Below are positions 31,210 through 53,441 of a stretch of DNA of 64,000 bases, in pieces (position 1 is the stretch's first letter; each line of letters begins with the position of its first letter). Position numbers and translations under genes: made by a program. Below the pieces are notes generated by a model. It saw only the letters and a program-made list of their open reading frames with translations, did not search any database and was not told where the DNA came from. The stretch spans positions 1 through 64,000 of the forward strand of contig NZ_VOHA01000002.1 in NCBI RefSeq assembly GCF_007859315.1, given 5' to 3'. The DNA is from Reyranella sp. CPCC 100927 (GTDB lineage Bacteria > Pseudomonadota > Alphaproteobacteria > Reyranellales > Reyranellaceae).

Positions 31210-31959
31210 TCACGTCAGGTTGAGGCCACCATCGGCGATGATGATTTCACCCGTCACGTAGTCATTGGCCACCAGCGCCGCAACCAGGTCGGCGATATCC
31301 TCGGGCCGCGCCATGCGGCGCATGGGCGCCTTCGTGTTCCAAAGTTCGATGGCGGCATCCCAGCCGGTCGTCATCGGCGTATCGACCAGGCCGGGCGCCA
31401 CGCCGTTGACCCGGATCGTCGGGCCCAGGGTCAGCGCCAGCAGCTTGGTGACGTGATGCAGCGCCGCCTTGCTGGCGGCATAGGGGATCGAGCCGCCCTT
31501 GGGCCGCACTGCCGCGTGTGTGCCGATATTGACAATACAGGCCGGACGTCCCGACTCGGCCGACAGGCGCAGTGCCGACTCGGCCTCGGCGATCAGCACC
31601 CAAGGCGCGATGACATTCACGTCCATCATGCGGCGCCAGATCTGCGGCGTGGCCGCCTTCAGGTCCGCATGCGGGATGCGCATCGTTTCGCCGGCATTGT
31701 TGACCAGCACGTCGAGCCGGCCGTGACGCGCCAGCACGTCGGCAACCAGGCGGCGCGCCTCGGCCTCGTCGGCCAGGTCGGCCGCGACATAGTCGATCGC
31801 ACCGATATCCGCGAGCAGCGACGAGGCATCGTCACGGACCCGCCGCCCGTGCGCTACGACGGCGTAGCCGTCACGCGCCAGCCGCCGCGCCGCGGCGGCG
31901 CCGATGCCCGACGTCGAACCAGTGACCAGCGCCAGCCGGCGCTCAGGAGGCAGCGGCAT
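31210..31959 (-). CDS. SDR-family NAD(P)-dependent oxidoreductase
   Basis: A 249-residue classical short-chain dehydrogenase with the full set. The cofactor turn is TGSTSGIGAAAARRLA, an NNAG motif is in VLVNNAGETM, and the active-site Ser region is IVNIGTHAAVRPKGG. YAASK holds the Tyr and Lys, and a PG motif is in VAPGLVDTP. The Gly/Arg-rich stretch AHGRRVRDD after beta2 suggests NADPH. Its start overlaps the thioesterase stop by 17 bp and the dehalogenase-like gene begins 4 bp beyond its stop, so three genes probably form one minus-strand unit. The substrate is unknown. Confidence 0.9.
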   Translation of the reverse strand: MPLPPERRLALVTGSTSGIGAAAARRLARDGYAVVAHGRRVRDDASSLLADIGAIDYVAADLADEAEARRLVADVLARHGRLDVLVNNAGETMRIPHADLKAATPQIWRRMMDVNVIAPWVLIAEAESALRLSAESGRPACIVNIGTHAAVRPKGGSIPYAASKAALHHVTKLLALTLGPTIRVNGVAPGLVDTPMTTGWDAAIELWNTKAPMRRMARPEDIADLVAALVANDYVTGEIIIADGGLNLT

Positions 31960-32473: not shown

Positions 32474-32989
32474 TCACGGCTGCAATGCACCGTCCAGCAG
32501 AAGATCCAGCGCGGTGATCAGGGTACTGCCTTCGCCGCCGGCCAGCCGGCGCTGGATGCGCCGCTCGTGCCGGCGGACCGCCGATTCGTAGACCGGCAGC
32601 AACGCTGTCCCCGTCGGGCCCAGTTCCAGTGCGTGGGTGCGCCTGTCGACCGGCGATGGGCGGCGCTTGATCAGCCCATGGTGCTCGAGCCGATCCAGGA
32701 TCGGCACCAATGTCGAACGATCGACGCCGATGGCACGCGCCAGCGCGGTCTGGCTGAGCCCGACATTGCGCGACACCAGCACCAGGATCCCGAACTCGCC
32801 CGGCGTGACCGGGATCTTCGTTTCGGCCATTTCCCGGGCGAAGTCCTGGAACACGGCGACCTGCGCCCGGCGCAGGGCATAGCCGACCAATCCCGGCAGC
32901 ATGCCCCGGTCAAGCCCGTCGGGGCCACCGGCACCGGGCTCGACCTGAGGCGCGGAGTTTCGACGGGATGGACGCGGCATGGCCTTCAT
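32474..32989 (-). CDS. MarR-family regulator of the di-iron oxygenase cluster
   Basis: A 171-residue MarR-type winged-helix protein. Helices and wing are visible: VTPGEFGILVLVSRNVGLSQ, ALARAIGVDRSTLVPILDRL (recognition) and LIKRRPSPVDRRTHALELG (wing with DRR). MarR proteins are usually ligand-relieved repressors of divergent catabolic genes. The start at ATG 32989 is chosen over the TTG at 33013 because the latter lies inside a perfect operator palindrome; ATG 32980 is also possible. It is divergent from the reductase gene and probably represses it and itself. Confidence 0.9.
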   Translation of the reverse strand: MKAMPRPSRRNSAPQVEPGAGGPDGLDRGMLPGLVGYALRRAQVAVFQDFAREMAETKIPVTPGEFGILVLVSRNVGLSQTALARAIGVDRSTLVPILDRLEHHGLIKRRPSPVDRRTHALELGPTGTALLPVYESAVRRHERRIQRRLAGGEGSTLITALDLLLDGALQP

Positions 32990-32999
32990 GCTATCAGAT

Positions 33000-33016
33000 T
33001 GTTTGGATACCAAACA
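33000..33016. promoter_or_regulatory. MarR operator palindrome
   Basis: TGTTTGGATACCAAACA is a perfect 7-bp inverted repeat over an ATA spacer, 11 bp from the marR ATG and 88 bp before the reductase GTG. TTTGG-N3-CCAAA-type palindromes are typical MarR-family operators. This is the only one seen in the divergent gap. Confidence 0.72.
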
Positions 33017-33104
33017 TTTTCCCCTTCCGCGACAGTACCGGCGGCTGGTGAATCTGTCGAGCGCAGCGGATGTCGGGCGGACGGCGCCGCACGAGAGGTC
33101 GAGC

Positions 33105-34145
33105 GTGGGTCATCTGGTCAAGATTTCCAACACCGGCACCGTGCTCGACTGCGGTGCCGGCGTCACCATCCTGGAGGCAGCGCTGGATGCCGGCGTCGCC
33201 TATCCGCATGGTTGCCAGTCCGGCAATTGCGGTGCCTGCAAATCCAACCTGCTCGACGGTACCGTCGACATGGAGGGCTACTCCGAATTCGCGCTTATGG
33301 ATGAAGAGCGGGACCGTGGCCTCATCCTCGCCTGCCGCGCCGTACCGGACATGCCCTGCGAGGTGGCGTGGCTCGACGAAGATGACCTGATCGTCCACCC
33401 GCGCCGGATCCTCAGCACCACCGTGACGGCGATCGACGACGTCACGCACGACATCAAACGTGTGCTGCTGGACGTGAACAGCGGTGGTCCGTTCACCTTC
33501 TCGGCCGGGCAGTTCGCCAGCGTCAGCTTCGAGGGCGCACCGGCACGCGACTACTCGATGGCCAATCGACCGGACGACAGGCAGCTGGAATTCCATATCA
33601 GGCGCATGCCCGGCGGCAACACCAGCGCCCACGTGGCGAACAACGTGAAGGTCGGCGACAAGGCACGTGTCGAGGGGCCTTTCGGCACGTCGTATCTGCG
33701 CGAGAGCCATCGCGGGCCGATTCTCGCCATCGCCGGCGGCTCGGGCCTGGCCCCCATCAAGTCGATCGTCGAGCACGCGCTCGCCCGCAAGCTGCCGCAG
33801 CATATTCATCTCTATTTCGGCGTACGCAACGAGCGCGACCTCTATCTCGAACAACATTTTACCACGCTGGCCGCGGCGAATCCGACGCTGCACTTCGTCC
33901 CGGTGCTGAGCGAACCTGGGGGCGCCACAAGCCGGCGCACGGGGCTCGTGCATGAGATCGTGGGCCGCGACTTCGACGACGTCGACGGTTGCAAGGCCTA
34001 CGTCGCTGGCCCGCCCGTGATGGTCGAGGCCGCAACAAAACTGCTGACGGCGCGTGGCATGCGGCGCATCGACGTGCACGCCGATGCCTTCTACACCGCC
34101 GCCGAGATGCAAGCTGCCGGCAAGAAGACCGGCGCGCAGATGTGA
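33105..34145 (+). CDS. 2Fe-2S/FAD/NAD(P)H oxidoreductase (electron-transfer component)
   Basis: A 346-residue reductase, started at GTG 33105 (VGHLVKISNTG) behind GAGAGG. Domain order: an N-terminal plant-type ferredoxin with Cys37, Cys42, Cys45 (GCQSGNCGAC) and Cys77 (ILACRA). An FAD domain follows with ARDYSMAN (the RxYSxxN motif), then an NAD domain with ILAIAGGSGLAPIKSIVEHA. This order matches BenC/DmpP/TouF-type reductases of ring oxygenases, whereas PaaE has the cluster at the C-terminus. It would feed electrons to the PaaA-like protein three genes on. It is first in a five-gene plus-strand run. Confidence 0.92.
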   Translation: MGHLVKISNTGTVLDCGAGVTILEAALDAGVAYPHGCQSGNCGACKSNLLDGTVDMEGYSEFALMDEERDRGLILACRAVPDMPCEVAWLDEDDLIVHPRRILSTTVTAIDDVTHDIKRVLLDVNSGGPFTFSAGQFASVSFEGAPARDYSMANRPDDRQLEFHIRRMPGGNTSAHVANNVKVGDKARVEGPFGTSYLRESHRGPILAIAGGSGLAPIKSIVEHALARKLPQHIHLYFGVRNERDLYLEQHFTTLAAANPTLHFVPVLSEPGGATSRRTGLVHEIVGRDFDDVDGCKAYVAGPPVMVEAATKLLTARGMRRIDVHADAFYTAAEMQAAGKKTGAQM

Positions 34146-34156
34146 CGGAGGATGAC

Positions 34157-35098
34157 GTGAGCGGATTGCTCGATGGACGCGTGGCGATCGTGACCGGCGG
34201 CGGCCGCGGCATCGGCCGCGCGATCGCCGCGGCACTGGTGGGCGCCGGCGCCAAGGTCGTGATTGCCGACAACGGCACGGGCATCGATGGCAACGGCGCC
34301 GATGCCTCGGTTGCCGCCGAGGCTGCCAAGGCACTGGGGCCGCATGCGATCGCCTATGGCGACAGCGTGGCCTCGCCCAGCACCGCCAAGGCCGTCGTCG
34401 ATCTGGCGGTGCGCACGTTCGATGGCATCGACATCGTGGTCAACAACGCCGCCATCCTGCGCGACTCGTTCGTCTTCAAGGCCGATCCCCGCGACTGGGA
34501 AGCGGTCATCCGCACCAACCTGTCGGCGCCCTTCTATCTCACGGCGGCCGCCAGCACCGTGATGCGCGAGCAAGGCAAGGCCGGACGCGCCGGCGGCCGC
34601 TACGACTGGGGCCGCATCATCAACATGGTGTCGTCGGCCGGCCTCTACGGCAATCTCGGCCAGGCAGCCTACGCCAGCGCCAAGGCCGGCCTGTTCGGAC
34701 TGACGCGCGTCACCGCGATGGACCTGGTCCGCGCGCAGATCACCGCCAACGCCGTGGCGCCGTTCGCGCACACCCGCGTGACCGACATCATCCAGCCGGC
34801 CAACGATGCTCAGCGCAGGTACAAGGAGCGGGCACTGCGGATCGACGCCAAGCATGTCGCCAACCTGGTGCTGGCACTGTGCAGTCCGGCGGCATCGTCG
34901 ATCACCGGCCAGCTGGTGGGCGTGCGCGGCCGCGAGATCTTCCTGTTCGGCCAGCCACGGCCGGTGGCACGCCTGGCCAACGCGACGGCCGACTGGGTGC
35001 CCGACGACCTGGTCGCCGCCCTGCAGCGCGAGGGCGCAGGCAAGATGACCGATCTCACCACCGATCTCGAAGCCTTCAACACCGAACCTGTCGTCTGA
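34157..35098 (+). CDS. SDR-family oxidoreductase (MFE-2-like 3-hydroxyacyl-CoA dehydrogenase type)
   Basis: A 313-residue SDR, started at GTG 34157 with GGAGG 6 nt upstream. It carries TGGGRGIGRAIAAALV, a long loop after beta2 (IADNGTGIDGNGADASVAAE) and VVNNAAILRD. Active-site Ser lies in IINMVSSAGLYG, with YASAK next. The extended loop and C-terminal tail (about 45 residues longer than classical SDRs) resemble the dehydrogenase half of peroxisomal-type multifunctional enzymes, which oxidise 3-hydroxyacyl-CoA. The 11-bp gap after the reductase gene supports an operon. Confidence 0.88.
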   Translation: MSGLLDGRVAIVTGGGRGIGRAIAAALVGAGAKVVIADNGTGIDGNGADASVAAEAAKALGPHAIAYGDSVASPSTAKAVVDLAVRTFDGIDIVVNNAAILRDSFVFKADPRDWEAVIRTNLSAPFYLTAAASTVMREQGKAGRAGGRYDWGRIINMVSSAGLYGNLGQAAYASAKAGLFGLTRVTAMDLVRAQITANAVAPFAHTRVTDIIQPANDAQRRYKERALRIDAKHVANLVLALCSPAASSITGQLVGVRGREIFLFGQPRPVARLANATADWVPDDLVAALQREGAGKMTDLTTDLEAFNTEPVV

Positions 35099-35121
35099 CA
35101 CGCGGCCGCACGGAGCCCTTC

Positions 35122-35835
35122 ATGAGCGAAGCACAGCCCATCGTCGTCAAGACCATCGCCGAGCTGAAGGAAGCGCCGGAGGAATTCCGCGAAGCCGTGG
35201 CCAAGCTGGTGATCAGCCATGCGATCAACGAGCTCTACGGCGCCCAGGTTTTCGACGAGCCGGCCATTGCCCTGGCGCCGACGCCGTATGCCAAGTGGCT
35301 GACCTGCCGCGTGGCCATGGAGGAATACGGCCACCACGTACGCTTCAAGCAGCTGGGCGAGCAGATCGGCATTCCAGAAGCGCGCATGGTACCCAGCGAC
35401 AGCAAACGGCCGCTGTCGATCTTCGAATTCCCTTTGAAGACCTGGGAAGAGTTCGTCACCATCAAGCTGCTGGCCGACCTGGCGGAGATCCTGCAGGTCG
35501 AGGACCTGTTGCACTGCGCCTTCCATCCGCTGCGCAACCTGGCGCGCGCCACCATGCCGGAGGAACGCTTCCATGCCCAGTTCGGCGAGGACTTCGCAGC
35601 CGAGCTGGTGAAGACACCCGAAGGCAAGGCGCGACTGCAGGACGCGATCAACCGCTACTTCCCCTATCTGCCGGCGTTCTTCGGCGGCTCAAAATCACGC
35701 AACAATGAGACGTTCCGCAAGTGGGGCATCAAGCTGCGGACCAACGACGACATGCGTGCCGACTTCCTGAACCGCGCCCGCGAGGTGACGGCGAAATATG
35801 GCCTGACCTTGCCGGAGTACCAGGCCGCGGCGTGA
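35122..35835 (+). CDS. PaaA-like ferritin-fold di-iron protein (phenylacetic acid catabolic family)
   Basis: A 237-residue helical protein of the PaaA/PaaC-related family. Candidate di-iron ligands occur in four helices: Glu37 (INELYG), Glu68 and His71 (AMEEYGHHVRF), Glu122 (LLADLAEIL) and Glu148/His151 (MPEERFHAQF), matching E...ExxH...E...ExxH. Family members activate O2, for example for epoxidation of phenylacetyl-CoA or benzoyl-CoA. It is preceded by a reductase and an SDR, and its stop overlaps the next start (GTGA). It is shorter than PaaA (about 310), so a distinct subfamily is likely. The substrate is unknown. Confidence 0.88.
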   Translation: MSEAQPIVVKTIAELKEAPEEFREAVAKLVISHAINELYGAQVFDEPAIALAPTPYAKWLTCRVAMEEYGHHVRFKQLGEQIGIPEARMVPSDSKRPLSIFEFPLKTWEEFVTIKLLADLAEILQVEDLLHCAFHPLRNLARATMPEERFHAQFGEDFAAELVKTPEGKARLQDAINRYFPYLPAFFGGSKSRNNETFRKWGIKLRTNDDMRADFLNRAREVTAKYGLTLPEYQAAA

Positions 35836-36380
35836 CGGCGATCGACCCTCATCTCGATGAGGTCCGCGACGCCATCGCCACGGCGTCGTGGTTTGCTGCC
35901 GTGGGCGAGCCTTGGACCGCGGCCGACCGGAGCGATGCGGAAAGCTATATCCTCGCCCTGCGGCTGGGCGCGCTGCATGTCGCCGTCGCACGCGACTGGC
36001 ACGACGCTGCCCGCATCACCCAGGACACGGGATGGTCGACGGCCTGGTGGGACGCCGAGGAGCGCCAGCGGCATGCGCTAATGGCCGATGCCGAACGGCG
36101 GTTCGACCGTCATGCGGTGATGACGGCACTAAGCACTGTGATGGCCACGGCTGGCGAGCTCGTGCACGGCCGCGCGGCGCTGGCGGCAACGCGCGCCGGG
36201 ATCGCCGACCCGGCACTGACACGCGTCGCGGCCGGCGCCGCGACGATGGCTTGCCATCAGGTCGCGCTGGCCATGATCGCGCAAGCGCCACAGACGCACC
36301 CCTTCCATGTCAAGTTCCGCCTGTTTGCCAGCGGCCGCTGGCCGCTGTGCGTCGTGGGCGATTCGCTCTACGTGCTCTGA
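35832..36380 (+). CDS. Helical protein of unknown function coupled to the di-iron gene
   Basis: A 182-residue protein with GTG at 35832 overlapping the preceding TGA, so it is translated with the PaaA-like protein. Its predicted helices include AESYILALRLGALHVAVARD and WWDAEERQRHALMADAERRF; EERQRH recalls the E-E-x-x-H of its neighbour. The C-terminus is HPFHVKFRLFASGRWPLCVV, then GDSLYVL. It is not recognised as a named family. Plausible roles are a degenerate, PaaC-like second subunit, an assembly factor or an independent enzyme; only the coupling and helical character are seen. Confidence 0.7.
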   Translation: MTAIDPHLDEVRDAIATASWFAAVGEPWTAADRSDAESYILALRLGALHVAVARDWHDAARITQDTGWSTAWWDAEERQRHALMADAERRFDRHAVMTALSTVMATAGELVHGRAALAATRAGIADPALTRVAAGAATMACHQVALAMIAQAPQTHPFHVKFRLFASGRWPLCVVGDSLYVL

Positions 36381-36443
36381 GCTGGGCTTGCCGTCGCGAC
36401 ATTGAGCGGCGCAGGATCAGCCGAGCCGACAGGAGAGCTACCC

Positions 36444-37310
36444 ATGACCGGGCCCACCGTTCATCGCGCGCACTTTGCACACGCCACCGGATCGGTGCCG
36501 CAGGCACGTGGTTTTCTGCCACGACCGGAAGGGCGCATCTACTATGAGGTCACGGGTACGGGGCCGGCGATCATCTTTGCACACGGGTTGGGCGGCAATC
36601 ACCTGTCGTGGTGGCAGCAGGTACCGGCGTTCTGCGCGCAGTACACGTGTGTAACCTTCGCGCACCGCGGCTTCGCGCCATCGGATCCGATCCCGGGCGG
36701 CCCCCACCCACGCGACTATGTCGATGACCTTGCCGCGCTGATCGCGCATCTCGGTCTCAGCGACGTCCGCATCGTCGCCCAGTCCATGGGTGGCTGGTCG
36801 GCTGTCGAGTACGCCTTGCGCCAGCCGCCGGCGCTCAAGGCCATGGTGCTGGCCGCCACCTCGGGCACACTCGATCCACGCGCCATCGACGGCGCCGCCG
36901 ATCTGCCCGATGCATGGAGCAAGAGCGTCGAGGCGAAGTATGCGGTATTCCGCGAGCGCGGCATTCACGTCGCGGCCGGTGATCGCATGGCGATGGAACA
37001 GCCAGCGCAGCATTTCCTCTATACCGCCATCGATGCGATGAACGTCACGCTCGACAAGGAAGGCGTACGCCGGCGCCTGGGCGAGACACGCGTGCGCGGT
37101 CTCGATGACGCCCGCCGCATCACCGTGCCGACGCTCTTCATCACCGGCGAGGAGGATATTGTCTTTCCATCTCCCGTCGCGCCCATGCTGGCGGCTGCCA
37201 TGCCCCATGGGCGTGCCGTGCAGATCGCCGCCGCCGGGCATTCGGCCTATTTCGAGCGCCCCGGTCAGTTCAATCGCCTGATCCGTGATTTCTTCACCAG
37301 CGTCGGCTGA
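36444..37310 (+). CDS. Alpha/beta-fold hydrolase ending the di-iron cluster
   Basis: A 288-residue hydrolase started at ATG 36444 behind AGGAGAG. Oxyanion region FAHGLGGNHLSWW, nucleophile Ser114 in VAQSMGGWSA, acid Asp in FITGEEDIVFP and base His in AAAGHSAYFERP form a full Ser-Asp-His triad. Related enzymes open enol-lactones or cleave C-C bonds of ring-fission products, or hydrolyse esters. It is fifth in the run that begins with the reductase, so it may process the oxygenase product. The gap of 63 bp has no clear terminator. Confidence 0.86.
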   Translation: MTGPTVHRAHFAHATGSVPQARGFLPRPEGRIYYEVTGTGPAIIFAHGLGGNHLSWWQQVPAFCAQYTCVTFAHRGFAPSDPIPGGPHPRDYVDDLAALIAHLGLSDVRIVAQSMGGWSAVEYALRQPPALKAMVLAATSGTLDPRAIDGAADLPDAWSKSVEAKYAVFRERGIHVAAGDRMAMEQPAQHFLYTAIDAMNVTLDKEGVRRRLGETRVRGLDDARRITVPTLFITGEEDIVFPSPVAPMLAAAMPHGRAVQIAAAGHSAYFERPGQFNRLIRDFFTSVG

Positions 37311-48515: not shown

Positions 48516-49502
48516 CTATTCCAGCACCGGCGGCTTGGCCAGCCCGAGCTGGCCGAGCATGGCGACGAATGCTTTCAGGCGCTCGCGGCGATGGGCGTCG
48601 AGGTCGAGATTGCCGTAGTCGAGAAAGCCCCGGCCCGTCGTGAAGCCGATATGGCCTTCCTTCATGTTGCGCTCGACGATGTCGGGTGAGGCATAGCGGT
48701 CGCTGCCCAGGGCCTGGGTCAGGTAGCGGCTGGCGTAGTACAGAATGTCGCCGCCGCCCCAGTCGATGAACTCCAGCAGGCCCAGCACGGCGAACCGGAA
48801 GCCGAAGCCGTACTTGATGGCCTTGTCGATTTCCTCCGCCGTCGCCACCCCCTCCTCGACCATGCGGGCGGCTTCGTTCATCGCCAACGCCTGGATCCGC
48901 GGCACGATGTAGCCCGGACGCGCCGCACAGACGACAGGCACCTTGCCGATTCCCTCCAGCAACGCCCGCAGCCTGGTCGTTACAGCCGCGTCGGTGCGGA
49001 CGCCCGGCGACAGCTCGATCAACGGCACGAGATAGGCCGGATTGAGCCAGTGCGCGTTGAGGAAGCGCGCCGGATGCTCGACCGCATCCGAGAGATCGTC
49101 GACCAGAATGGTCGACGTCGTCGAGGCGATGATCGGCTGCGGCCCGGCCAGCCGGCTCGCCCGCGCCAGGACCGCGCGCTTGACGTCGACCACTTCCGGT
49201 ACACCCTCGAAGACGACGGCCGCCGACGACAGGGCGGCAGCCGCATCGGGTTCGGCCACGACCGAGACCCGCGCCGCGATGATGTCGACGGCGTCCTCGG
49301 GGAAAACGCCGAGCTGCGCCAGAACACGCAGCGTCTGTCGTACCTCCTCGCGCGCAGCGTGCGCCAGATCAGCGAACGCAGCCGGCGCCCGCGGCTTCAG
49401 GTCGACCAGGCTCACGGGATGGCCGGCATAGGCGAACGCCACGGCGATGCCACGCCCCATGCGGCCGGCCCCCAGGGAGGCGATGGGCACCCGGACCATC
49501 AA
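48516..49502 (-). CDS. 3-hydroxyacyl-CoA dehydrogenase family protein
   Basis: A 328-residue NAD-dependent dehydrogenase of the HADH/L-carnitine dehydrogenase superfamily. The Rossmann motif is LGAGRMGRGIAVAFAYAG, with catalytic His in LNAHWLNPAYLVPLIELSPG (the H-x-N-P motif). A helical C-terminal domain is complete (EEIDKAIKYGFGFRF). Its start overlaps the stop of the next gene upstream (ATGA, 49499-49502), and it is last in a five-gene minus-strand run. Substrates could be 3-hydroxyacyl-CoA or a related beta-hydroxy acid. Confidence 0.9.
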   Translation of the reverse strand: MMVRVPIASLGAGRMGRGIAVAFAYAGHPVSLVDLKPRAPAAFADLAHAAREEVRQTLRVLAQLGVFPEDAVDIIAARVSVVAEPDAAAALSSAAVVFEGVPEVVDVKRAVLARASRLAGPQPIIASTTSTILVDDLSDAVEHPARFLNAHWLNPAYLVPLIELSPGVRTDAAVTTRLRALLEGIGKVPVVCAARPGYIVPRIQALAMNEAARMVEEGVATAEEIDKAIKYGFGFRFAVLGLLEFIDWGGGDILYYASRYLTQALGSDRYASPDIVERNMKEGHIGFTTGRGFLDYGNLDLDAHRRERLKAFVAMLGQLGLAKPPVLE

Positions 49503-50590
49503 CTGAACCCCGCATTGAGGAGCTGCTGCAGGCCGGCACGGTCGAGGTGACCCAGCCCCAGACCGGTCAGGGTGCGTCCCGTTTCCAGGGCGTCGATGCC
49601 GCAGACGGCTCCGCCGATGGCGGCGAACGCGCGCGCCAGCGGCGTCGGAACACCGGCGAGTTCGCCGACCGAGACCAGGAAGGACAGCCCGATGTGCGTA
49701 TCTTCCAGCATGTAGCGGTGCGCCGTGAGCACGATGCGCTCACGCCAGTCGCCGGAATCGGTCAGGCGGTCATGCGAACCGCGACCGTACATCCAGATAT
49801 CGCCTTCCTTGGCATAGTGATTGGCGAGCGGAAAATGCGGTGGCCCATAGCCCAGAGCCGTGCGCACCGCGATGCGTTCGGCATCCAATGCGTCCGTCAC
49901 GCGCCGGATCGCCGGCTGGGTACCCTCCTTGTGAATGTCCCAGCGCTCGAAGTGTTCGAGCGGACCGGCGTTCATCGTGATCAGCGGCGGGTGAATGATG
50001 GGGCCGGCGTTCATCAGCGCGCCCGACAGCGCATCGCCGCAGTCCTCGATCACACCCGGAAAGGCCTCGGCGATCACCTCGAGCGCCTGATCCTTGCGGG
50101 TGAGCGGAAAGACGCCGGTCGGCAGGCGTTTGGCGCGCACGGTGATGGCAACCTCGAAGGGCCCGTGCTTGCGGGTCAGCCACGGCAACGTGCCGGTCTC
50201 GGCGAAGGCGGCATCGGCGCGATTGCCGGCCGCCCGCGCCGCCTGGGCAAACAGCAGCGTGCCGAACGTACCGGGTGGCAGGTACACCACCTGTCCATCG
50301 GCAAGATGCGGCGCCAGCAGGCGCGCGATATCCCTTTGCGCCGTCGCTGGCGCCGGGCAGAGGATCAGCGCCGCGTCATGGACGGCGGCGCCCATGTCGC
50401 CGGTGACCAGCGACACGGCAACATCATGGCGTCCATTGAAGTCCTTCACCAGGATACGGCTGCCGGCATCGCGATGGGCCGCCACGGCCCCGGCATCGCG
50501 CCGCCACAGGCGAACCTCATGGCCTGCCATGGCAAGATCGCCGGCCGCCGCGAACGAGCCGTTGCCGCCGCCCAACACCGCAATGCGCAT
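49499..50590 (-). CDS. NAD/NADP octopine/nopaline dehydrogenase family protein
   Basis: A 363-residue protein of the opine dehydrogenase type. The N-terminal nucleotide fold is MRIAVLGGGNGSFAAAGDLA, and a C-terminal octopine/nopaline domain has AGPIIHPPLITMNAGPLEHF. Opine dehydrogenases reduce imines formed from 2-oxo acids and amines. Its start overlaps the ligase stop (TGATG). An opine-type enzyme within a CoA-dependent catabolic run is unusual and hints at an N-containing substrate or a beta-hydroxy acid dehydrogenase role. Confidence 0.85.
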   Translation of the reverse strand: MRIAVLGGGNGSFAAAGDLAMAGHEVRLWRRDAGAVAAHRDAGSRILVKDFNGRHDVAVSLVTGDMGAAVHDAALILCPAPATAQRDIARLLAPHLADGQVVYLPPGTFGTLLFAQAARAAGNRADAAFAETGTLPWLTRKHGPFEVAITVRAKRLPTGVFPLTRKDQALEVIAEAFPGVIEDCGDALSGALMNAGPIIHPPLITMNAGPLEHFERWDIHKEGTQPAIRRVTDALDAERIAVRTALGYGPPHFPLANHYAKEGDIWMYGRGSHDRLTDSGDWRERIVLTAHRYMLEDTHIGLSFLVSVGELAGVPTPLARAFAAIGGAVCGIDALETGRTLTGLGLGHLDRAGLQQLLNAGFS

Positions 50591-52122
50591 CACGCCGCTC
50601 CCGTTGTTGCTTGCGTCGCCTGTACCATTTCCTTCAACCGGAAATGCTGCACCTTGCCCAAGGCCGTGTGCGGCAGGTCGTCGACAAAGACGAAGTCGCG
50701 CGGAATCTTGAAGCGCGCGAGATGCACGGCGAGATGGTGGACCAACCCCTCGGCATCGACCGACAGGCCCGCACGCAGCACGACATAGGCAACCGGCACT
50801 TCCTGCCATTTCGGATCGGCGCGACCGATGACGGCCGATTCCGCGACGGCGGGATGATCACCCAACACGCGCTCGATCTCGGCCGGATAGATGTTCTCGC
50901 CGCCGGAAATGATCATGTTTTTCTTGCGGTCGTGGATATGAAAGTAGCCCTCGGCATCCCGCGTCGCGATATCGCCGGTGCAATACCAGCCGTCGCGCAA
51001 CGCCTCGCGCGTGGCGGCTTCATTGCCCCAGTACTCCTGGAAGACATTGGGCCCGCGCACCACCACCTCGCCCGCGGTGCCGTGCGCCACCTCCCGGCCT
51101 TCATCGTCCACGACACGCGCCTCGCAGTGGATGCCGGGCAGACCGACCGCGTTGCCGCGCCCCGTATCGCCGCCGAGCCGGGTATAGACCGCGATCGGGC
51201 ATGTTTCCGTCGAACCGTACACCTGCAGCACCGGGATACCACGCGCGGTGATCACGTCGATCAGCGGCTGCGGCACGATGGTCGACCCAGTGGTGACCGC
51301 ACGCAAGCTGGCAAGGCTCGTGTCCTGCCAGTCCGAATGTGCCGTCAAGGCCTGGATCATGGCCGGCACGAGGACCACGAGCGTCGGCGCATCCAGGGCA
51401 AGGGCCACCAATGTCGTCTCGGGCGTAAATCGCGGATGCAGGGTCACGGTCGCGCCGACCTGCAGCGCCGGCGTGGTCTGGATGTTGAGGCCGCCGACGT
51501 GAAACAGCGGCAGCGCCGTCAGGACGTGGTCGTCGGCGGTGAGCCCGTGCACATGCTGGCTCATCGCCGCATTCCACACGAGCGCCTCCTGACGCAGGAC
51601 GGCGCCTTTGGGACGCCCTGTCGTACCCGACGTGTAGACAATCAGCAGCGGGCATGTGATGTCGACATGCGGGCTGCGATCCGCGCCGCGACCATGATCC
51701 AACATCTGCTCGAACGAACCGCTTTCGGGTTGGAAATCGATGCCGACGATCCGCGCATCCGGCAACGCCTGTTTCAGCAACGGCGTGACGGCGGCGAAAG
51801 CCTCTTCGACGACCAGCACCTTCACGCCAGCATCCGACAGGATGAACGCCTGCTCTGCCGCGGCAAGACGCCAGTTGAGCGGCACCAGCATGGCGCCGAG
51901 CCGGGCGCAGGCATAGAGCAGGACCAGATAGTCAGGATGGTTCGCTGCCAGGATCGCGACCCGATCACCGGGGCCAACCCCCAGGCGCGATTTCAGGCCG
52001 CGCGCAGCGGCGCCGATGCGCTCGGCAAAGCCTGCGTACGTCAGCGTCCGGCCCAGGAAACGGATCGCCGCCTTGTCCGGCGTGAACGCGGCATTGCGCT
52101 CGATGAGATCGGAGAGATCCAT
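50590..52122 (-). CDS. AMP-dependent acyl/aryl-CoA synthetase
   Basis: A 510-residue ANL-superfamily ligase that would adenylate a carboxylate and form its CoA thioester. Motifs: LIVYTSGTTGRPKGAVLRQE (A3), LQVYGSTETCPIAVYTRLGG (A5), YCTGDIATRDAEGYFHIHDR (A7), KKNMIISGGENIYPAEIE (A8) and HTALGKVQHF with the catalytic Lys (A10). Both domains are complete. The substrate class (fatty, aromatic or heterocyclic acid) cannot be read. It is in the same run as an acyl-CoA dehydrogenase and 3-hydroxyacyl-CoA dehydrogenase, making a beta-oxidation-like set without a hydratase or thiolase. Confidence 0.94.
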   Translation of the reverse strand: MDLSDLIERNAAFTPDKAAIRFLGRTLTYAGFAERIGAAARGLKSRLGVGPGDRVAILAANHPDYLVLLYACARLGAMLVPLNWRLAAAEQAFILSDAGVKVLVVEEAFAAVTPLLKQALPDARIVGIDFQPESGSFEQMLDHGRGADRSPHVDITCPLLIVYTSGTTGRPKGAVLRQEALVWNAAMSQHVHGLTADDHVLTALPLFHVGGLNIQTTPALQVGATVTLHPRFTPETTLVALALDAPTLVVLVPAMIQALTAHSDWQDTSLASLRAVTTGSTIVPQPLIDVITARGIPVLQVYGSTETCPIAVYTRLGGDTGRGNAVGLPGIHCEARVVDDEGREVAHGTAGEVVVRGPNVFQEYWGNEAATREALRDGWYCTGDIATRDAEGYFHIHDRKKNMIISGGENIYPAEIERVLGDHPAVAESAVIGRADPKWQEVPVAYVVLRAGLSVDAEGLVHHLAVHLARFKIPRDFVFVDDLPHTALGKVQHFRLKEMVQATQATTGAA

Positions 52123-52153
52123 CCATCAGTCTCCGCCGTGTGGCGCACCCGAA

Positions 52154-53428
52154 TCAGTCGTCCGTCTCACCGGGCTTGTACAATGTCTCACGCCCGATGC
52201 GTTCGAGGCAGATCTCCGCCGTCCACGGCAGCATGACCGCACCACAGCGGCTGTCGCGATAGATGCGCTCCAGCGGGAACCGCTTCAGCATGGCATGCCC
52301 ACCGCAGGTCCGGATCGCGGTCGTGGCAATCGCGTTGGCGTTTTCCATGACCGTGTGCTGTGCCGCATAGGCGCGCAGCACCTGCTCCCGGGTCGGATTG
52401 GCCCGCGCTTCGCTGATCGCCTGGAACCACAGCGTCTTGGTCTGCTCCAGGGTCACGGACATCGACGCAACGGCGAACTGCTTGGGCGGGAAACTGCGTC
52501 GTTTGACCGGCGGCGCACCCGGCACTTCGCCGCGCAGATACGCCACCGTGAAATCGAAGGCGGCCTGCGCGAGGCCGACATAGGTCGGTGTCAGGGTCAG
52601 GAACATGTGCGGCCAGCGCGTCGCGGCCTGGAAGTAGACCCCGCGCGGCATCAGCATCTCGTCGGCCGGCACGAACACATCCTTGAACAGCAAGGTGCGC
52701 GAGACGGTGCCGCGCATGCCCAACGGATCCCAATCGCCCGTGACCTCGACACCCTGGGCCTTGGCCGGGATGGCCAGAAAGAGCGTATTGCGCCGGCTGG
52801 CACTCTCGCCTTCGGCACGCGCTGTGCACAGGATGCCGTAGTAATCCGCCGAGCCTGACAGCGAGGCAAAGATCTTCTTGCCGTTGACGATGAAGCCGCC
52901 GTCCACCGGCCGTGCTTCAGTTCCAAACGCGACGCTGCCGGCGGCGGCCGCCCCGCCCTCCTCGGAGAAAGGCTGCGCATAGAGAGCGCCGTCCGTCACG
53001 ATCCGATGATAGTGCAGCCGCCGGCGTTTCTCGTGGAGGGCGCGGTCCTCGGCGTTCATCGGCAGTTCGTCGGCCAGAACGCCGGGCCACAGCGTCGAGG
53101 CCACATGCATGTTCCACGAGAGTGCGGTGGCGCCGCAGTAGCGGCCAAGCTCGGCGGCAGCGAGACAGTAGGTCTGATAGTCGGCACCAAGGCCGCCGTC
53201 GGCCTTGGGGACACAGATCGAGAGCAGGCCTTCGCCATGCATGTCCCGGAAGTTCTCGATCGGAAACGTCGCTTCGCGATCGTAACGCGCAGCGCGCGGC
53301 GCCAACACGCGCTGGCCGAAGCGGCGCGCCAGGCTGATCAGATCGGCCTGTTCCGGTGTCAGCCGAAACGCATCCGGGTCGAACATCGGCGCATCGCCGT
53401 CGCGTGTATCGGTCTGGGGTGCAGGCAT
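52154..53428 (-). CDS. Acyl-CoA dehydrogenase family protein
   Basis: A 424-residue FAD flavoprotein. ATG 53428 (MPAPQTDTRDGDAPMFDPDA) is used; a TTG lies one codon upstream and ATG 53386 is another option. It has the N-terminal helices (LISLARRFGQRVLAPRAARY), the beta-domain with VNGKKIFASLSGSADYYGIL and WDPLGMRGTVSRTLLFKDVF. The C-terminal helical domain holds IRTCGGHAMLKRFPLERIYR and PWTAEICLERIG. The RDSRCG in place of RDAR and the lack of an evident E-x-x-x catalytic stretch make the reaction uncertain; nitroalkane or flavin-monooxygenase relatives exist. Confidence 0.9.
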   Translation of the reverse strand: MPAPQTDTRDGDAPMFDPDAFRLTPEQADLISLARRFGQRVLAPRAARYDREATFPIENFRDMHGEGLLSICVPKADGGLGADYQTYCLAAAELGRYCGATALSWNMHVASTLWPGVLADELPMNAEDRALHEKRRRLHYHRIVTDGALYAQPFSEEGGAAAAGSVAFGTEARPVDGGFIVNGKKIFASLSGSADYYGILCTARAEGESASRRNTLFLAIPAKAQGVEVTGDWDPLGMRGTVSRTLLFKDVFVPADEMLMPRGVYFQAATRWPHMFLTLTPTYVGLAQAAFDFTVAYLRGEVPGAPPVKRRSFPPKQFAVASMSVTLEQTKTLWFQAISEARANPTREQVLRAYAAQHTVMENANAIATTAIRTCGGHAMLKRFPLERIYRDSRCGAVMLPWTAEICLERIGRETLYKPGETDD

Positions 53429-53441
53429 CAAACGACTCCGC

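What the first reader, a model, noticed from the sequence alone, without database searches (positions are those of the whole stretch)
32474..37310. MarR-controlled di-iron oxygenase cluster with an unknown coupled subunit
Seen: a MarR gene and perfect operator diverge from reductase (N-terminal 2Fe-2S, FAD, NAD), SDR, PaaA-like di-iron protein, an unrecognised 182-residue helical protein and an alpha/beta hydrolase, with a PaaI thioesterase and another SDR just beyond the regulator. Known: PaaA-type proteins oxygenate CoA thioesters and need a reductase plus structural partner, but in paaABCDE the reductase has its cluster at the C-terminus and paaB/C/D are present. Inference: this is a distinct, smaller oxygenase pathway in which the unknown protein replaces PaaC/PaaB. 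It is the best candidate in the window for an undescribed system.
Basis: partly seen in the sequence, partly recalled or inferred. Interest (0 to 1): 0.72.

Follow-up and report, generated by a model that had tools for sequence, protein, structure and literature searches.

The report
Di-iron hydroxylase operon feeding gentisate pathway
This is a conserved bacterial operon that appears to oxidise an aromatic acid, activated as a CoA ester, with a two-part iron enzyme so that it enters the known gentisate breakdown route; the puzzling small protein beside it travels with the pathway, but its relatives also live elsewhere without the enzyme.

Summary
In detail: MarR regulator, operator, three-domain reductase, SDR, PaaA-like di-iron protein, unrecognised 182-residue protein and hydrolase are there. 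In 80 related loci (Alphaproteobacteria) the reductase precedes PaaA in 73 of 74 and the SDR in 75 of 77 with enough flank. In the more distant loci a gentisate 1,2-dioxygenase gene lies downstream in 31 of 37; in the nearer ones in 0 of 35. One cluster outside the class (G355) also holds CoA synthetase, thioesterase, isomerase and hydrolase. Best reading: a two-component, BoxAB-like aryl-CoA hydroxylase delivering gentisate. By score it is neither PaaA (95 bits, cut-off 280) nor BoxB (12, cut-off 499).

'The unknown protein replaces PaaC/PaaB' is not shown. It lies near PaaA in 64 of 67 loci and in G355's cluster. But 44 of 62 sampled genomes with its family lack the di-iron gene; in 35 of 42 of these examined it lies next to xthA (exonuclease III). 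Vineibacter terrae keeps PaaA (92%) with no match for it. It is pathway-associated, probably non-catalytic, partner unknown.

Substrate unknown: hydroxybenzoyl-CoA or benzoyl-CoA. No structure prediction ran. Ten searches of an open-access library listed no description. New variant of a known kind.

The parts
31210..31959 (-). second SDR-family dehydrogenase; close relative beside the cluster only in Vineibacter among the loci seen; probably peripheral
   Evidence: PF13561 165.7 bits; 82% in L053
31943..32443 (-). hotdog-fold thioesterase of PaaI/TIGR00369 type; possible thioesterase of the pathway
   Evidence: PF03061 45.6 bits, TIGR00369 38.7 over cut-off 36.6; in 38 of 40 near loci
32474..33013 (-). 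MarR-family regulator (likely start ATG at 32989)
   Evidence: PF01047 57 bits; a relative in 65 of 80 loci
33000..33016 (.). operator palindrome TGTTTGGATACCAAACA in the divergent promoter region
   Evidence: core GTTTG-N5-CAAAC in 41 of 53 regions
33105..34145 (+). NAD(P)H reductase with N-terminal 2Fe-2S ferredoxin domain, FAD and NAD domains (BenC/MmoC-type layout)
   Evidence: upstream in 73 of 74 loci with enough sequence
34142..35098 (+). SDR dehydrogenase (GxxxGxG and YxxxK present)
   Evidence: upstream in 75 of 77 loci with enough sequence
35122..35835 (+). PaaA-like di-iron oxygenase subunit; likely ligands E37, E68, H71, D119, E148, H151; Val64 in place of PaaA's bridge lysine
   Evidence: PF05138 100.5 bits; these residues 45 of 45
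35832..36380 (+). 182-residue protein of unknown fold, no invariant metal-binding residues; its family also lies at the ftsK-lolA-xthA locus of other Alphaproteobacteria
   Evidence: no family hit
36444..37310 (+). alpha/beta hydrolase, distantly like 3-oxoadipate enol-lactonase (92 bits, cut-off 256); role unknown
   Evidence: PF00561 90.7 bits; a relative over 100 bits in 30 of 40 near loci, 0 of 40 more distant

Best explanation
The operon encodes a two-component aryl-CoA ring hydroxylase that supplies the gentisate pathway. An aromatic acid is first made into its CoA thioester (inferred; by the ADP-forming CoA synthetase or AMP-forming ligase found near related clusters). NADH electrons pass through FAD and the N-terminal 2Fe-2S domain of the reductase to the di-iron centre of the PaaA-like protein, which puts one oxygen of O2 on the ring (inferred from families and conserved residues). 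The SDR carries out a dehydrogenation of the CoA-bound product (inferred, weakest step). A thioesterase frees gentisate (inferred; 4HBT type in some relatives, perhaps the hotdog protein or the alpha/beta hydrolase here). Gentisate 1,2-dioxygenase opens the ring, and maleylpyruvate isomerase and an FAH-family hydrolase finish it (gene presence shown in relatives; activity inferred). The MarR protein represses the operon at the TTGTTTG-N5-CAAACAA-type operator until an inducer binds (inferred). The small protein is a non-catalytic companion of the pathway, not a dedicated replacement of PaaC.
For: Conserved order red-SDR-PaaA (73 of 74, 75 of 77) and gentisate dioxygenase downstream in 31 of 37 more distant loci. 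The dioxygenase of L113 scores 521 bits, over the cut-off of 442. G355, outside the class: marR | red-SDR-PaaA-GDO(548 bits)-small-FAH-4HBT thioesterase-isomerase(298 bits)-CoA synthetase in one cluster. The window genome has a GDO on another contig (C1, 557 bits); 37 of 61 genomes of the relatives sample, own included, have one over the cut-off. The six presumed di-iron ligands are conserved 45 of 45, and in 3 of 3 sister and 7 of 7 PaaA-type proteins. Two benzoate-CoA ligase family proteins (499 and 737 bits, cut-off 375) lie near the cluster in L127. The known gentisyl-CoA thioesterase is a 4HBT-class hotdog enzyme (PMC516016, passages).
Against: No activity is known. In the near loci GDO is not in the cluster (0 of 35 with enough downstream sequence), and GDO occurs also in family genomes without the di-iron gene, so for the window the link to gentisate rests on more distant relatives. 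A plain hydroxylation of a hydroxybenzoyl-CoA would not need the SDR. The role and partner of the small protein are open. The CoA-thioester substrate is inferred from family and neighbours; no ligase of known specificity lies beside the window's cluster (an AMP-ligase at 50590-52122 matches no equivalog over its cut-off among the 25 shown). The window's hotdog protein is of PaaI type, not shown to be of the 4HBT class of the known gentisyl-CoA thioesterase.
Confidence: 0.62

Rival explanations
1. One reading: the small protein is an obligate structural subunit of the oxygenase, replacing PaaC/PaaB, and the operon is a self-contained oxygenase of unknown product.
For: Small gene within 3.5 kb of PaaA in 64 of 67 loci with at least 2.5 kb downstream, a GTGA overlap in the window, 18 of 19 sampled genomes with the di-iron gene also have it (one as a fragment; Fisher p 1.7e-12 without correction for kinship), present in the out-of-class cluster. 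In G024 and G036 no PaaA gene is found and the small gene is broken.
Against: 44 of 62 genomes with the small family lack PaaA, and 35 of 42 examined have it next to xthA. Vineibacter terrae (92% PaaA, intact core) has no match to the window's small protein (single-protein search); L122 and L131 show none in the locus, G044 none in the genome. It changes faster: 45-52% against 81-86% for PaaA among full-length hits of the family outside the genus. A reductase relative stays with it without PaaA in L230-L232. BoxB shows that no structural subunit is needed. The gene losses in G024/G036 may be deletions across both genes.
Confidence: 0.2
2. One-oxygenase route from benzoyl-CoA: the PaaA-like protein epoxidises benzoyl-CoA, water opens the epoxide to a 2,5-dihydrodiol, and the SDR re-aromatises it to gentisyl-CoA.
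For: The SDR is as constant as the reductase (75 of 77), which plain hydroxylation would not explain. A strong benzoate-CoA ligase family protein (737 bits) lies near the cluster in L127. The related BoxB makes an epoxide of benzoyl-CoA (PMC4498308, passages).
Against: 38 of 61 genomes of the relatives sample, own included, have a BoxB over the cut-off, so benzoyl-CoA already has a route. L127 also has a relative of salicylyl-CoA 5-hydroxylase (384 bits, cut-off 1078), which could add the second oxygen separately. No epoxide hydratase was recognised in the clusters annotated. The 2,5-opening has no precedent that I know of.
Confidence: 0.15
3. In the window's family the system acts outside gentisate catabolism, on another acid, and GDO is not in the cluster because the product differs.
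For: 0 of 35 near loci with enough sequence have GDO in the cluster, and the hydrolase and other flanking genes there differ from the more distant loci. GDO occurs in the family with or without the di-iron gene.
Against: Across this boundary the window's proteins keep 66-79% (PaaA-like), 43-67% (reductase) and 48-70% (SDR) identity, the presumed ligands and Val64 are all kept, and the MarR operator core is shared with some distant loci.
Confidence: 0.12

Closest known systems
BoxAB benzoyl-CoA 2,3-epoxidase
   Same: Two-component di-iron oxygenase on an aryl-CoA; BoxB needs no structural subunit (PMC4498308, passages); reductase separate from the di-iron protein
   Different: BoxB model scores 11.8 bits against a cut-off of 499; BoxA carries two 4Fe-4S clusters while this reductase is a BenC-type 2Fe-2S flavoprotein; gentisate dioxygenase beside it in relatives; the genome has BoxB separately (869 bits)
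PaaABCDE phenylacetyl-CoA 1,2-epoxidase
   Same: PaaA-like subunit of family PF05138 with the presumed di-iron ligands
   Different: 95 bits against 280; no second PF05138 protein over the cut-off in the genome; PaaA's bridge lysine K68 corresponds to a valine in 45 of 45, lysine in 7 of 7 PaaA-type proteins of the samples; reductase cluster N-terminal
Gentisate pathway of hydroxybenzoate catabolism (gentisate dioxygenase, maleylpyruvate isomerase, FAH hydrolase)
   Same: The three downstream genes occur in related clusters
   Different: In the known 3-hydroxybenzoate route gentisate is made by a flavoprotein hydroxylase (start of abstract of PMC6043778, listing); here a di-iron system would take that place
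Salicylyl-CoA 5-hydroxylase and gentisyl-CoA thioesterase routes
   Same: CoA-thioester logic ending in gentisate; hotdog thioesterase (PMC516016, passages)
   Different: The hydroxylase there is a flavoprotein (recalled); here di-iron. Of the 94 loci searched a relative of it lies near the cluster only in L127

Membership tests
PaaA (1,2-phenylacetyl-CoA epoxidase, TIGR02156) | score over the curated cut-off of 280 bits | tested here: not met
   95.4 bits; relative in G355 75 bits
PaaA (1,2-phenylacetyl-CoA epoxidase, TIGR02156) | di-iron ligands (set recalled from the family pattern, placed by alignment) | tested here: met
   E37, E68, H71, D119, E148, H151 in 45 of 45
PaaA (1,2-phenylacetyl-CoA epoxidase, TIGR02156) | lysine bridge (K68 of E. 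coli PaaA) | tested here: not met
   Val64 in 45 of 45; Lys in 7 of 7 PaaA-type proteins, of which one (L204) was checked over the PaaA cut-off; feature from PMC4498308 passages, correspondence worked out from the alignment
PaaA (1,2-phenylacetyl-CoA epoxidase, TIGR02156) | PaaC partner of family PF05138 in the genome | tested here: not met
   only the window gene over the cut-off in 9.08 Mb; the second, weak hit is BoxB
PaaA (1,2-phenylacetyl-CoA epoxidase, TIGR02156) | PaaB and PaaD present in the genome | not tested
   none among the window proteins scanned; genome not searched for them
BoxB (TIGR03225) | score over the curated cut-off of 499 bits | tested here: not met
   11.8 bits; BoxB elsewhere in the genome, 869 bits
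BoxAB-like two-component aryl-CoA oxygenase (functional likeness) | active with reductase and di-iron protein only, on a CoA thioester | not testable with these tools
   anatomy fits; no assay
Gentisate-forming pathway | gentisate 1,2-dioxygenase in the same cluster | tested here: inconclusive
   31 of 37 more distant loci, 0 of 35 near loci; in the window genome on another contig
Small protein as dedicated oxygenase subunit | occurs only or mostly with the di-iron gene | tested here: not met
   18 of 62 genomes with it have PaaA; 44 do not, two of these on weak or split hits
Small protein as dedicated oxygenase subunit | present wherever the di-iron gene is | tested here: not met
   64 of 67 loci and 18 of 19 genomes, one of them as a fragment; not found in L053, L122, L131 or genome G044

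The most novel reading that the evidence does not exclude
A hitherto undescribed route in which a two-component di-iron epoxidase and an SDR turn benzoyl-CoA (or a hydroxybenzoyl-CoA) into gentisyl-CoA, an aerobic CoA-dependent branch into the gentisate pathway spread among soil and marine Alphaproteobacteria. The small protein would be a new kind of accessory factor whose family was moved between this pathway and the lolA-xthA locus.
Probability: 0.25. Interest if true: 0.7.

Novelty: new variant of a known kind. Interest (0 to 1): 0.5.

Why it matters
[quoted passage not shown] Which hydroxylases feed gentisate dioxygenase there I could not tell from those passages. This cluster, found in Rhodospirillales-type, Reyranella and other Alphaproteobacteria, is a candidate for that funnel step (my inference). 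It would also be a further branch, beside PaaABCE and BoxAB, of CoA-dependent aerobic ring oxygenation by PaaA/BoxB-like di-iron proteins.

Tried and rejected
Considered and rejected: (1) full paa pathway; (2) BoxB; (3) the small protein as a PF05138 paralogue or a known fold: no Pfam or NCBIfam hit, profile against PDB sequences only noise, E 4.4; this does not exclude a ferritin-like fold; (4) the small gene as a mere stray housekeeping gene: weakened by its presence in the out-of-class cluster, where neither xthA nor lolA was found.

Led nowhere: ten literature searches listed no paper on such a cluster, judged from titles and starts of abstracts; only the held open-access library was searched, and only passages of PMC4498308, PMC9789639 and PMC516016 were read. 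Structure prediction never ran, so no fold search was made. One search used wrong strands for several reference proteins and is superseded; for the same reason part (L195, L201, L203) is void.

Limits of the counts. The 80 named loci are the best 80 of 165 relatives. The split into 40 near loci (L053-L091, L111) and 40 more distant ones is mine, by identity; L093 has the gene content of the near ones but was counted as distant. rests on tblastn hits of at least 45 bits; L127's gentisate dioxygenase, on the other strand, is not in the 31. The PaaA tree separates the groups only moderately and has long branches, L051 most of all; row L198 was left out as a fragment. For the small-protein tree 129 proteins were found and 100 used: near-identical Reyranellaceae rows from a list of 20 were left out by choice, identical rows too; its root is unknown, so whether the family began in the catabolic cluster or at xthA is not settled. 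G122 (weak hit) and G262 (split) are among the 44 but their neighbourhoods were not fetched.
Full report
What is there. The MarR gene (best start 32989) and the reductase diverge from a region holding TGTTTGGATACCAAACA at 33000-33016, the only such site in the window with up to 2 mismatches. The core GTTTG-N5-CAAAC recurs in 41 of 53 marR-red intergenic regions, mean 0.005 in mononucleotide shuffles. The reductase has the order 2Fe-2S, FAD, NAD with the CX4CX2C...C motif; its best PDB match is 5ogx, named a cytochrome P450 reductase, and carbazole, toluene-4-monooxygenase and benzoate dioxygenase reductases follow. The PaaA-like protein is PF05138, 100.5 bits. The 182-residue protein matches no Pfam or NCBIfam model at E up to 1.

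Where it occurs. The scan of named genomes found 165 relatives of the PaaA-like protein, of which the best 80 were returned, L053-L132. The record titles are mostly Reyranella, Rhodospirillales or unspecified Alphaproteobacteria, with Vineibacter terrae closest to the window (92%). In an even sample of 289 genomes of the class 19 carry this subfamily (E below 1e-120); weaker matches occur in 41 more, some PaaA proper (L204, 435 bits over its cut-off). In a phylum sample of 398 genomes 3 carry it: the own genome, G005, and G355, which the tool places outside the class.

The pathway. I split the 80 loci into 40 near ones (Reyranellaceae-type) and 40 more distant ones. Counting only loci with enough flanking sequence, the reductase is upstream in 73 of 74, the SDR in 75 of 77, and the small gene within 3.5 kb in 64 of 67. 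Gentisate 1,2-dioxygenase lies downstream on the same strand in 31 of 37 distant loci but in 0 of 35 near loci. The dioxygenase of L113 scores 521 bits against a cut-off of 442. FAH-family hydrolases are in 15 of 40 distant and 0 of 40 near loci, ADP-forming CoA synthetase alpha relatives in 25 of 40 distant and 23 of 40 near loci (anywhere in the locus). Maleylpyruvate/maleylacetoacetate isomerase-type GST genes are in 3 loci, 4HBT-class thioesterase and TRAP transporter genes in several. The clearest case is G355: marR | reductase, SDR, PaaA-like, gentisate dioxygenase (548 bits), small protein, FAH, 4HBT-type thioesterase, isomerase (298 bits, cut-off 171), CoA synthetase of 683 residues. 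Read together that is a route from an aromatic acid through a CoA ester and gentisate. Hotdog 4HBT enzymes include the known gentisyl-CoA thioesterase (PMC516016, passages); the window's own hotdog protein is of PaaI type. In the window genome gentisate dioxygenase (557 bits) is on another contig, without the other cluster genes beside it except a weak AMP-ligase match.

Not PaaA, not BoxB. The protein scores 95 bits against 280 for PaaA and 11.8 against 499 for BoxB. Six residues that correspond to the di-iron ligands of the family (assignment recalled, placed by alignment) are invariant in 45 of 45 relatives. PaaA has a lysine, K68, bridging acidic residues near the iron centre (PMC4498308, passages); the corresponding position is valine in 45 of 45 and lysine in 7 of 7 PaaA-type proteins of the samples, of which one was checked against the PaaA model. 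In the tree the subfamily is one side of a branch, support 90/87, beside a sister group of three, L195-L197. At the places of these three (L263-L265) a reductase relative lies beside the PaaA relative, in L263 and L265 also a benzoate-CoA-ligase-like gene, and no small-protein match was found (further neighbours). The window genome has no second PF05138 protein over the cut-off; its weak second hit is BoxB, 869 bits. BoxB works without a structural subunit, so the absence of PaaB/C needs no replacement.

The small protein. In an alignment of 49 members only F, W, A and G positions are invariant, so it is probably not catalytic. In the 289-genome sample its family is in 62 genomes and PaaA in 19; 18 have both (G235 a fragment; in G214 and G103 on different contigs), 44 have the small protein without PaaA (Fisher p 1.7e-12, not corrected for kinship). 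Of those 44, 42 neighbourhoods were examined: xthA is next to it in 35, lolA nearby in 31, a reductase relative in 7, gentisate dioxygenase in 5. So the family has a second home, ftsK-lolA-small-xthA. Mixed loci exist: lolA, then reductase-PaaA-(GDO)-small-xthA, in L105 and L126; lolA-reductase-small-xthA in L230-L232. In the tree, 39 of the 42 rows labelled without PaaA form one side of a branch (support 86/83); the other three are L255, and L236 and L238, whose genomes have PaaA on another contig. Loci with both PaaA and xthA (L121, L104, L126, L132, L247) lie just outside. The root is unknown, so the direction is not settled. Against a strict subunit role stand Vineibacter terrae and G044, which have PaaA but no small-protein match in the genome (single protein, profile), and L122 and L131, with none in the locus. 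For some coupling stand the out-of-class cluster with the small gene and no xthA or lolA found, and G024 and G036, where PaaA is not found and the small gene is broken; in G036 a PIN-family gene lies in the gap.

Mechanism and substrate. Shown: gene content, order, conservation. Inferred: electron transfer NADH to FAD to 2Fe-2S to di-iron, oxygenation of an aryl-CoA ring, release of gentisate. The substrate is open. BoxB elsewhere in the genome argues against benzoyl-CoA as the only substrate; benzoate-CoA ligase family proteins near the cluster in L127 argue for benzoyl- or hydroxybenzoyl-CoA. A relative of salicylyl-CoA 5-hydroxylase lies in L127 (384 bits over the N-terminal half of the model, cut-off for the whole 1078), and the window genome has a 39% identical relative of that protein. 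By elimination 3- or 4-hydroxybenzoyl-CoA is my first guess, but the constant SDR fits better with a dihydrodiol-type intermediate; I cannot decide.

Novelty. None of ten searches of the held open-access library listed a paper describing such a cluster (titles and starts of abstracts seen); subscription papers are not covered. From memory, a bacterial 4-hydroxybenzoate to gentisate route with CoA ligase, hydroxylase and thioesterase has been reported; the searches did not find it and its hydroxylase was not compared. I rate it a new variant of a known kind.

Noticed in passing
   Followed up: partly
L206-L262, e.g. L136 8806-13633: A gene family at the ftsK-lolA-xthA locus of many Alphaproteobacteria, with no Pfam hit (window protein, L135) or NCBIfam hit (window protein, L113) in the members tested.
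   Followed up: partly
L230, L231, L232 and L255: A reductase relative sits between lolA and the small gene with no PaaA gene found in the locus; its electron acceptor there is unknown.
   Followed up: no
L138 8591-9013: In G036 a PIN-family gene (toxin-antitoxin type model, 33.7 bits, cut-off 29) lies where PaaA would be and the small gene is broken, while reductase and SDR relatives remain.
   Followed up: no
L127 1558-4388 and 11289-12896: In a Hwanghaeella MAG a relative of salicylyl-CoA 5-hydroxylase, a benzoate-CoA-ligase family gene, gentisate dioxygenase and FAH hydrolase lie on the strand opposite the PaaA cluster, with a second benzoate-CoA ligase family gene on its other side: perhaps two gentisate-forming systems side by side.
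   Followed up: partly
L054 10121-12669 and other Reyranella loci: In several Reyranella loci a D-cysteate sulfo-lyase gene (CuyA, 497 bits in L054, cut-off 450) and/or an M81/MlrC-type gene follow the cluster; no obvious link to aromatic catabolism.
   Followed up: no
window 48516-53431: Minus-strand run holding an AMP-forming acyl-CoA ligase (50590-52122) and, judged by eye only, a hydroxyacyl-CoA dehydrogenase, an octopine-dehydrogenase-like protein and an acyl-CoA dehydrogenase; a possible source of a CoA ligase, specificity unknown.
   Followed up: partly
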